Below, piece after piece: positions 29,501 through 32,500 of a DNA stretch of 64,000 nucleotides. Source of the DNA: Seriola aureovittata (lineage: Eukaryota > Chordata > Actinopteri > Carangiformes > Carangidae); contig NC_079387.1 of NCBI RefSeq assembly GCF_021018895.1, positions 8,336,083-8,400,082 on the forward strand. Reading direction: 5' to 3'. Under the pieces are notes generated by a model. The model had not been told where the DNA came from, did not search any database, and saw only the letters and a program-made list of their open reading frames with translations. Made by a program: the position numbers and the translations under genes. Each line of letters begins with the position of its first letter. Position 1 is the stretch's first letter.

Positions 29501-32500
29501 GGGCACTGGAAAATAGCTGTGGACATTTTACACTATTTTCTGATATATTATAGACTAAACAACTGATCGATGAGGAAAATAATTGAGTTTCAGCCCTAGG
29601 AAAAACACCACTAAGCATTTCAAATAAACAATCTACAAAGAAAACTGTTTTTTTTTGTTGTGTAGCTGTGTCATCAAAGAATGTCCCAATTATCTGGGGA
29701 AGACATAAACTTGCAGATGGCTAAAGTTTCATAAAATACCCAATATCAGTAATATATTGGTCCAATTAAAATGCACTGAGATTAAAATGCGTTTCATTGC
29801 CTTTCTTTGACCTCCCCTCACCTCATACATGTCCACCTGTGCTTTCTCAACAGAGAATGTCACAGAGATCAAGACAAATATTTTTGTCACCAGCTTTGGC
29901 CCGGTGTCTGACACAGAGATGGTGAGTTCATCTGCAGCAAACATCATAGATACACATACAGAGTTTGACTAAGCTGGACAAACACACACATCTCCAAAGC
30001 CCATCCAGACTACTGTTGGTATTTTTAGATTGAAAACATATATTTACATTTCATGAGACTGGTGCTGCTGCTCCTGCTGTTCCCTGGAAGTTCATTCATG
30101 TCCTAGTTTTGTCTTTGAAAATTGGCTCTTTTTGGTTACTTGTAAATGAAATGAGTGTGGATGACTTAAACTTTTAAGATTTAATGCAATGTGGCGGGGC
30201 CCTTCCAACTTGTTCCAAACGATTCGTCTCTCTATTAATTCATTCTCTTATGAACTATACGGTTCCACCTGGATAGCAAAATGCATTAACTCCCCTCTTG
30301 CATTAAATCTTCTATTAAACCCTGTCATATCCCTGGCACACTTTGACTCAGCAGTGATCAAACTTGCCACTTTCCTATAATTGACTTGAAAAAAGGTATT
30401 GACAGAGGGGCACGATTGATTGATGAAATGTGCCAAGAGATTTGAATGGTTCTGCGGTTCATAAAAGCGTATATGTCACTCTGCTAACAGCATCATTATT
30501 CTGTGGGATGGAGTATTGTATTTGTTTCTTGGTCATTCTTTTTTTAAGTCGATATTTCACAAATGAGCAAATTTATGATGGATTTGATCATCATATCTTT
30601 AAAATCGTCTTATAAAGGCATAAAGAAGAAACTACTGTAATACAAAGCACGTGGTTTGACCATTTTGTGCTGACTGGCAGTCAATTGTAAAGAAGATAAA
30701 TTAGCTTTTCTTTCTCAATGCACATATTCTCTCTGTAACACTAAATAAGCCTTTAAAGCTCCATTAGGAGAGAAATTTACATAAAAGTACATCAAACTTA
30801 TAAATCTAAGACTGAAAATGATGCTGCAACAGAGTCAAGAAAAAGAAACTGAGACCCTATGTAACTTTAAATTCTTATTTGGGGGAAATAAACAGCACAG
30901 GAAGTGATGTTCTGAAGCTTAGGAGTGAAAATGATAACCATCTCTTAAAACGCAGTGAACACCACAGCCAGAGGAGGATCTTTCGCCTTCACCATCTTTT
31001 GGTATTAACTGATCACAGGGCAGCCAGATTGGTCAACATGAGAACAGTGTGAAGTTTACTGACATCACATTATATGGCTTCTGCTTCCAAAAAGTAAATC
31101 TGTCTTTTGCTGTTTGCCTGTCAGGAATACACCATAGACGTCTTCTTCCGTCAGAGCTGGAAGGACGAGCGTCTGTGCTTCAAAGGGCCTATGGAGATGC
31201 TGCCGTTAAACAACCTGCTGGCCAGCAACATCTGGACCCCAGATACCTTTTTCCTTAACGGCAAGAAGTCTATTGCTCACAACATGACCACGCCCAACAA
31301 GCTGCTGAGGCTGAAGGATGACGGCACTTTGCTTTACACTATGAGGTAGGTGATAACGCAGATGTTGTTCATCCTCTGCATGATATATTTACAGAAACAG
31401 GTGTATTCTTTTGCCCTGAATAATGAACTATGGGTAAGTGGTTTGCTTCACATGAAACTTAATTACAGATCCTGTGTTGACCAAGGTTGGTAGCACTTGA
31501 TGATTTAGAAATCTCATTAATGTTGCATACTGCTAGTCATAGACAAGGTACACTTGTCTGCACAATCCTGGGGTTCAAGGTGCAGTGTTTCCATACTAAT
31601 GCTAAACTGAGGACACCTCCCATTTAGAAGATTGTTAAGGAAAGGTTTGTTAGAGTACACAAAAATTAAGAAAGCAGGCAGCAAGGCCAGTACTACACAC
31701 TATACAGCTTTGAAAAATACAGTGATAGGAACCCTCAGTATGTGAGTCCGACTGCAGGGAAATGGTGACACCCAGTGGCCAATCAGGGGCATTTGATTTC
31801 TACTACAAAAAGTCCACTTAAAGGTAAAAGCAAGGGAAATAGTAAATATAGCAAGTGTTTCTTGAAATTCTTGCATTTCCTTCATTTCTTCTAATACTTT
31901 TCAATTGTTCATTGCTTCATCGTTTCAAATATAAATACGAGTGACATGTCTCTTTGAATGTAGGAGTTTGACAAACATTGCAGAGGGAGATCATCCATTA
32001 TGAAAGGCAGCCTCATTGTGAACTCTAGTTTTTGGCAGTAATGTAGTGGTAAATTAAAAAAAAGACAGAAATAGGCCAACAATGGACTCCAGATGGCGAT
32101 CGCTATAAATGAACCACCAGTATTTAAACTAAAATACTGAACATTCTCTGCTTGAAATTGAGGACACAGTAATAGAAAGTTGAGAAATGAGCCCTTAAAG
32201 ACCCTTAAAAATATAGTTTTTTTAGTTGAATGTGTGTGTAAGCACCAGGACTCTGTGACCTTTGGACCAGAGAATTAGAATAATTCTATGCTTATCCTCA
32301 GGAGTTACTGTAGCTGCAGGACTTAAGAGTGACTGTATCACGGATGAGAGCACTCTATCTGATACCAGTCCCACCCAGAGGGAGAATGATGCCGGATCGA
32401 GGGCAGATTATCCGTCCTGACATATATACATATCCAAAGAAGAGTGTATTTATAGTCACCTCTTTGTCACAAGCACAAAACGCACACATGAACACACACA

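What the first reader, a model, noticed from the sequence alone, without database searches (positions are those of the whole stretch)
31254..31256. gabra5 has Leu where benzodiazepine-sensitive alpha subunits have His
Loop A reads WTPDTFFLNGKKS. Established: alpha-1, -2, -3 and -5 of mammals have FFHNGKKS, and that His decides classical benzodiazepine binding; alpha-4 and alpha-6 have Arg and are diazepam-insensitive. Leu is neither; it is the residue the beta subunit has at the same place (DTYFLNDKK, seen in this window). Inference: receptors with this alpha-5 should respond poorly to diazepam-type drugs or have altered pharmacology.
Basis: partly seen in the sequence, partly recalled or inferred. 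Interest (0 to 1): 0.8.

Follow-up and report, generated by a model that had tools for sequence, protein, structure and literature searches.

The report
Fish alpha-5 GABA receptor drug-site leucine
The brain-receptor gene in this fish window really carries leucine where the mammalian version has the histidine that helps bind Valium-type drugs, and the relatives sampled suggest this is the normal state in bony fishes, with a second change in the same drug pocket in most of them.

Summary
CTT (Leu) lies at 31254-31256, in an intact, spliceable gabra5. It is neither an error nor a peculiarity of one species. Among 152 proteins from two capped searches, Leu stands here in 64 of 64 teleost alpha-5 rows, 3 of 3 holostean, 5 of 5 sturgeon, paddlefish and bichir, 1 coelacanth and 1 lungfish. 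His stands in 5 of 5 cartilaginous-fish rows and 33 of 34 tetrapod rows, the last unreadable. A gene tree resembling the accepted species tree needs two changes: His to Leu in the bony-vertebrate ancestor, and back to His in tetrapods. Three separate His-to-Leu changes are not excluded.

In gars, bowfin and nearly all teleosts the pocket's loop C Thr is Arg (window AGA, 42433-42435).

The drug inference is only partly supported. Published work indicates that residues other than His here, beta-2's Leu included, can permit diazepam action (PMC5686171). Leu alone may be tolerated. Leu plus loop C Arg makes weak classical benzodiazepine action in neopterygian alpha-5 plausible, but this was not tested.

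The parts
28037..28161 (+). gabra5 exon with ..DGLLDGYDNRLRPGLGE (N-terminal part; the signal-peptide exon was not identified)
   Evidence: the acceptor at 28036 is inferred; donor GTTCGC is weak
29854..29921 (+). gabra5 exon ENVTEIKTNIFVTSFGPVSDTEM
31125..31345 (+). gabra5 exon with loop A (WTPDTFFLNGKKS)
31254..31256 (+). CTT, Leu at the position of mammalian alpha-5 His105 (loop A)
37051..37133 (+). gabra5 exon with the Cys-loop (CPMQLEDFPMDAHAC)
42293..42436 (+). gabra5 exon with the end of loop B and the start of loop C
42433..42435 (+). AGA, Arg in loop C (TSRGQY) where tetrapod alpha-5 and the alpha-2 and alpha-3 rows have Thr (rat alpha-1 Thr206)
48773..48925 (+). gabra5 exon, rest of loop C to M1/M2
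49160..49371 (+). gabra5 exon, M2-M3
49739..50038 (+). gabra5 last exon, M3-M4 loop, M4 and stop TAA
11448..11633 (-). neighbouring GABA-A beta subunit exon with DTYFLNDKK (Leu at the same place)
56958..56990 (+). N-terminal motif EYDKTLRPDIG of a neighbouring GABA-A gamma-type subunit
   Evidence: identity as gabrg3 inferred from the cluster, not tested

Best explanation
This is an ordinary, intact teleost GABA-A receptor alpha-5 subunit. It carries an old, fixed remodelling of the plus-side pocket that binds benzodiazepines in mammals. Shown: Leu at loop A is shared by all bony-vertebrate alpha-5 rows sampled except tetrapods, and a loop C Thr to Arg change was added in the line to gars, bowfin and teleosts. 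Inferred from the tree: His was the jawed-vertebrate state, changed to Leu in the bony-vertebrate stem, and changed back to His in the tetrapod stem. Inferred mechanism: the subunit still assembles and is gated by GABA, because the GABA site uses its other face. Its alpha(+)/gamma(-) pocket is hydrophobic at loop A and positively charged at loop C, so classical benzodiazepines should bind or act more weakly in neopterygian alpha-5 receptors. In lineages with Leu alone (sturgeon, bichir, coelacanth, lungfish) the drug response may be largely kept. The residues are probably held by selection on gating or assembly, not on drug binding.
For: Codon and intact gene. Leu and His counts over 152 proteins. 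Alpha-5 clade 97/95 with species-like topology and two changes at the site (site column left out of the tree). P(Leu) 0.89-0.94 at the bony-vertebrate node and 0.84-0.89 at the lungfish-tetrapod node. Only 1 of 354 compared columns has the pattern ray-fin = coelacanth = lungfish, differing from tetrapod = shark. Loop C Arg in 54 of 58 readable teleost rows (64 rows) and 3 of 3 holostean rows. Zebrafish alpha5beta3gamma2 gives GABA currents in oocytes, EC50 66.6 uM (PMC7973766 passages). Human alpha-5 H105R raises the GABA EC50 about threefold, so the place affects gating as well as drugs (PMC6234229 passages). Alpha-1 T206A and T206V lower diazepam affinity 3- and 7-fold (PMC5686171 table).
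Against: No pharmacology of a fish alpha-5 with diazepam was found or done. In the same table alpha-1 T206C had no effect on diazepam affinity, and the homologous beta-2 T202S did not significantly change diazepam potentiation of beta2gamma2, so the weight of the loop C place is unsure. The reversal rests on one coelacanth and one lungfish row. A model with only His to Leu changes (three of them) is 1.1 lnL worse than a one-rate reversible model with the same His root, which is not decisive. The AU test does not reject all Leu rows as one clade (p 0.129). Four readable teleost rows lack the loop C Arg.
Confidence: 0.72

Rival explanations
1. Parallel evolution: His stayed in the bony-vertebrate ancestor and changed to Leu separately in ray-finned fishes, coelacanth and lungfish; tetrapods never changed.
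For: With the root fixed to His, the His-to-Leu-only model is just 1.1 lnL worse than the one-rate reversible one (-11.00 against -9.87). His and Leu codons can differ by one base.
Against: It needs three changes instead of two; P(Leu) at the bony-vertebrate node is 0.89-0.94 under reversible models.
Confidence: 0.22
2. Hidden paralogy: two alpha-5 copies, one Leu and one His, existed in early bony vertebrates and were lost reciprocally.
For: AU test does not reject all 27 Leu rows as one clade (p 0.129). One further column has coelacanth and lungfish with ray-fins against tetrapods, the sharks having no majority letter.
Against: 0 of 200 bootstrap trees have that clade. His alpha-5 as one clade is rejected (p 0.018). 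Loop A is the only column of 354 with the full split, while 10 columns put coelacanth, lungfish and sharks with tetrapods. The gene lies between beta and gamma genes as in mammals (the mammalian arrangement is recalled). It would need at least four losses.
Confidence: 0.05
3. The substitution has no effect on benzodiazepines: Leu is tolerated at loop A and the loop C Arg points out of the pocket, so fish alpha-5 receptors respond like mammalian ones.
For: Beta2gamma2 receptors with Leu99 are potentiated 216% by 1 uM diazepam, EC50 69 nM (PMC5686171). The same paper reports small effects for His101 to Phe, Tyr, Gln and none on diazepam affinity for alpha-1 T206C. PMC3407089 (passages) notes that a reactive group in place of the drug's chlorine reacts at the homologous place of alpha-2, -3 and -6 but not of alpha-5.
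Against: Loop C Thr changes to Ala and Val lower diazepam affinity 3- and 7-fold in alpha-1; Arg is larger and charged. Arg at loop A abolishes midazolam action in alpha-1, -2, -3 and -5 (PMC6234229), though that is another place.
Confidence: 0.3
4. A base-call or assembly error, or a peculiarity of this one species.
For: None found.
Against: 64 of 64 teleost rows agree. Reads of this assembly were not seen.
Confidence: 0.01

Closest known systems
Mammalian GABA-A alpha-5 (GABRA5; PDB 6a96, 9haa)
   Same: Best sequence match among solved structures; same Cys-loop and loop B Pro; gene beside beta and gamma genes.
   Different: Loop A Leu for His105, loop C Arg for Thr and Gln for Glu, Val for Ile further on in loop C.
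Alpha-4 and alpha-6, the diazepam-insensitive subunits
   Same: No His at loop A.
   Different: They have Arg at loop A (PMC6234229); the alpha-4 parts of two fused models keep Thr in loop C (P0121, P0125). Fish alpha-5 has Leu at loop A and Arg in loop C, and groups with alpha-5.
Beta subunits (beta-2 Leu99)
   Same: Leu at the same loop A place (window beta near 11487; PMC5686171).
   Different: Alpha-5 by sequence match and tree; a shared residue, not kinship.

Membership tests
GABA-A receptor alpha-5 (gabra5) | Ligand-binding and transmembrane domains of Cys-loop channels | tested here: met
   PF02931 E 3.8e-48, PF02932 E 1e-44
GABA-A receptor alpha-5 (gabra5) | Cys-loop of 13 residues between cysteines | tested here: met
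   CPMQLEDFPMDAHAC in the joined exons
GABA-A receptor alpha-5 (gabra5) | Groups with alpha-5 and not alpha-2 or alpha-3 on a tree | tested here: met
   Alpha-5 clade of 44 rows 97/95; alpha-1, -4 and -6 were not in the tree
GABA-A receptor alpha-5 (gabra5) | Divergent from a beta gene and followed by a gamma gene | tested here: met
   Beta exons on the minus strand, gamma-type motif downstream on plus; beta-3 and gamma-3 identity not tested by tree; that this is the mammalian order is recalled
Classical benzodiazepine-sensitive alpha class | His at loop A | tested here: not met
   Leu
Classical benzodiazepine-sensitive alpha class | Potentiation by diazepam with gamma-2 | not testable with these tools
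   No recording of a fish alpha-5 with diazepam was seen in the listings of held papers
Diazepam-insensitive class (alpha-4, alpha-6) | Arg at loop A | tested here: not met
   Leu

The most novel reading that the evidence does not exclude
The benzodiazepine-binding His of human alpha-5, the receptor targeted by memory-directed drugs, is not an unbroken inheritance: the bony-vertebrate ancestor had lost it to Leu and the tetrapod ancestor regained it by back-mutation. Neopterygian fishes went the other way, adding a loop C Arg, so in zebrafish-like and other teleost models alpha-5 receptors lie outside classical and alpha-5-selective benzodiazepine pharmacology.
Probability: 0.45. Interest if true: 0.65.

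Novelty: new variant of a known kind. Interest (0 to 1): 0.5.

Why it matters
Fish, zebrafish above all, are used to screen neuroactive drugs, often on the assumption that GABA-A subtypes match those of mammals (one example calls the receptor highly conserved across vertebrates, zebrafish included: PMC12810237, passages). If alpha-5 in these fishes lacks a normal benzodiazepine site, alpha-5-directed ligands and alpha-5 explanations of fish drug responses would not carry over. It also offers a natural series of pocket variants (His/Thr, Leu/Thr, Leu/Arg) in one orthologue, which would let one ask what this site does without drugs and whether the tetrapod His is a regained state.

Tried and rejected
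Considered and dropped: base-call error (64 of 64 teleost rows agree); gene conversion of the exon from beta or another alpha (neighbouring residues stay alpha-5-like; no tract test was run); a duplicate exon carrying His (motif scan of both strands found one alpha-type loop A exon).

Led nowhere: the window's own genome could not be searched (tool busy). A paper search for His-to-Leu mutants found none. A search for zebrafish work with the alpha-5-selective ligand L-655,708 gave 5 papers; passages of one were read, where the ligand appears only in the reference list. No structure prediction was run, because a single-subunit model would not show the alpha/gamma interface.

Mended on checking: one search compared the reversible and the His-to-Leu-only models with unlike root settings; one search repeats it with one root (difference 1.1 lnL instead of 0.4, in favour of the reversal).

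Not in print: the ten paper searches listed no paper whose title or abstract start says that fish alpha-5 lacks the His, and I saw no such statement in the passages read. They cover open-licence papers only, no supplements or figures, and most hits were seen as listings, so this is weak evidence of absence.

Full report
Observation. The codon at 31254-31256 is CTT in the frame WTPDTFFLNGKKS. It lies in an exon of 31125-31345 with a CAG acceptor and a GTAGGT donor. Eight exons join into an open frame of 434 residues before the stop at 50036-50038. The signal-peptide exon was not located, and the first donor (GTTCGC) is weak. The protein has the two Cys-loop channel domains. Its best solved-structure match by sequence is alpha-5 (6a96), where the aligned residue is His. 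The neighbouring beta gene on the minus strand does read DTYFLNDKK.

How widespread. A search with the 294-residue joined exons returned 3972 proteins, of which the best 120 are listed. A second search with the lungfish protein listed 120, 32 of them new. Over all 152 listed proteins, loop A is Leu in 64 of 64 teleost alpha-5 rows, 3 of 3 gar and bowfin rows, 5 of 5 sturgeon, paddlefish and bichir rows, the coelacanth and the lungfish. It is His in 5 of 5 cartilaginous-fish rows and 33 of 34 tetrapod rows; the last (P0139) lacks the stretch. The two unnamed rows have Leu (P0016) and His (P0096). The 37 other rows (alpha-2 and alpha-3, fish ones included) all have His; five of these are fused models that also carry an Arg from an alpha-4 or gamma part. 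Rows are representatives of 90% clusters and include several models of one species (Myripristis for one), so they are not independent species counts, and cluster members other than the representative were not seen. Alpha-1 of fishes was not sampled.

Dating. A careful tree of 59 rows (58 of these proteins and the window gene), with the loop A column left out, gives an alpha-5 clade (97/95) in which cartilaginous fishes split first. It then has coelacanth, lungfish and tetrapods (93/83) against ray-finned fishes (97/91), which is the accepted species order (recalled). The residue needs two changes on it. Two-state models give P(Leu) 0.89-0.94 at the bony-vertebrate node and 0.84-0.89 at the lungfish-tetrapod node, so a return to His in tetrapods is favoured. 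It is not proven: with the root fixed to His, a model allowing only His to Leu is 1.1 lnL worse, and all 27 Leu rows as one clade are not rejected (p 0.129). Hidden paralogy fits badly. His alpha-5 as one clade is rejected (p 0.018). Of 354 compared columns, loop A alone has coelacanth and lungfish with ray-fins against tetrapods and sharks; one more column has the same split with sharks undecided, while 10 columns have coelacanth, lungfish and sharks with tetrapods.

A second change in the pocket. Loop C reads TSRGQY in the window (Arg AGA at 42433-42435) where tetrapod alpha-5 has TSTGEY. Arg is present in 3 of 3 gar and bowfin rows and 54 of 58 readable teleost rows. The four exceptions are three Myripristis models with Thr and Corythoichthys with Ser; six teleost rows were unreadable. 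All readable rows of the other groups have Thr: sturgeons, paddlefish and bichir (4 readable of 5), coelacanth (1), lungfish (1), sharks and rays (5 of 5) and tetrapods (32 of 34). This Thr is alpha-1 Thr206, where Ala and Val lower diazepam affinity 3- and 7-fold while Cys has no effect; the homologous beta-2 T202S did not significantly change diazepam potentiation of beta2gamma2 (PMC5686171, read).

What it means for drugs. His to Arg at loop A abolishes midazolam action in human alpha-1, -2, -3 and -5, and raises the alpha-5 GABA EC50 about threefold (PMC6234229, passages). Arg is a poor guide to Leu, however. PMC5686171 (parts 1 and 2 of 5 and passages; [quoted passage not shown] 1999, which I did not read. 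PMC3407089 (passages) adds that a reactive drug analogue reached the loop A place of alpha-2, -3 and -6 but not of alpha-5. Leu alone may thus be permissive. I expect reduced classical benzodiazepine action in neopterygian alpha-5 receptors from the two changes together; this is inference. Zebrafish alpha5beta3gamma2 is functional in oocytes (EC50 66.6 uM GABA), and the words diazepam and benzodiazepine do not occur in that paper's main text (PMC7973766, abstract and passages).

Which copy this is. In a tree of 51 ray-finned alpha-5 rows (one of them the unnamed P0016), teleosts above the eel Synaphobranchus split into two clades, of 24 rows (99/94) and 20 rows (91/81), with Denticeps, Umbra, Clinocottus and Poecilia in both, as expected of a teleost-wide duplication. 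The window gene is in the clade of 24. All four otophysan rows (two Sinocyclocheilus, Pangasianodon, Electrophorus) are in the other, so the zebrafish gene may be the other copy; zebrafish itself was not among the labelled rows. Both clades have Leu.

Verdict.

Noticed in passing
31176-31178: TGC, an extra cysteine in the extracellular domain (DERLCFKG) where human alpha-5 has Arg; seen in 10 of 19 teleost rows of the alignment and also in the Xenopus laevis row. Whether it is free or paired is unknown.
   Followed up: partly
31227-31229: AAC (Asn) in LLASNIWTP in 18 of 19 teleost alpha-5 rows; the other rows of the alignment have Lys except the bichir alpha-3 row P0143, which has Asn too.
   Followed up: partly
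29856-29864: AATGTCACA makes a possible N-glycosylation sequon (NVT) where human alpha-5 reads RIT; Asn at that place in 4 of 19 teleost rows.
   Followed up: no
28162-28167: The donor after ..RPGLG is GTTCGC, a poor match to the usual GTRAGT.
   Followed up: no
28037-50038: Teleost gabra5 forms two clades that look like whole-genome-duplicate copies; the window copy belongs to the clade that held none of the four otophysan rows.
   Followed up: partly
P0043, P0047, P0072 (Myripristis): Three models have CSTGQY at loop C while P0044 of the same species has TSRGQY; another gene copy or a mis-joined exon.
   Followed up: no
48784-48786: The loop C Ile of human alpha-5 (TIMT), recalled as a contact of alpha-5-selective ligands, is Val here, in all 25 ray-finned rows, coelacanth, lungfish and the 5 amphibian rows, and Ile in the 7 amniote rows; sharks and rays are mixed, 3 Ile and 2 Val.
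   Followed up: partly
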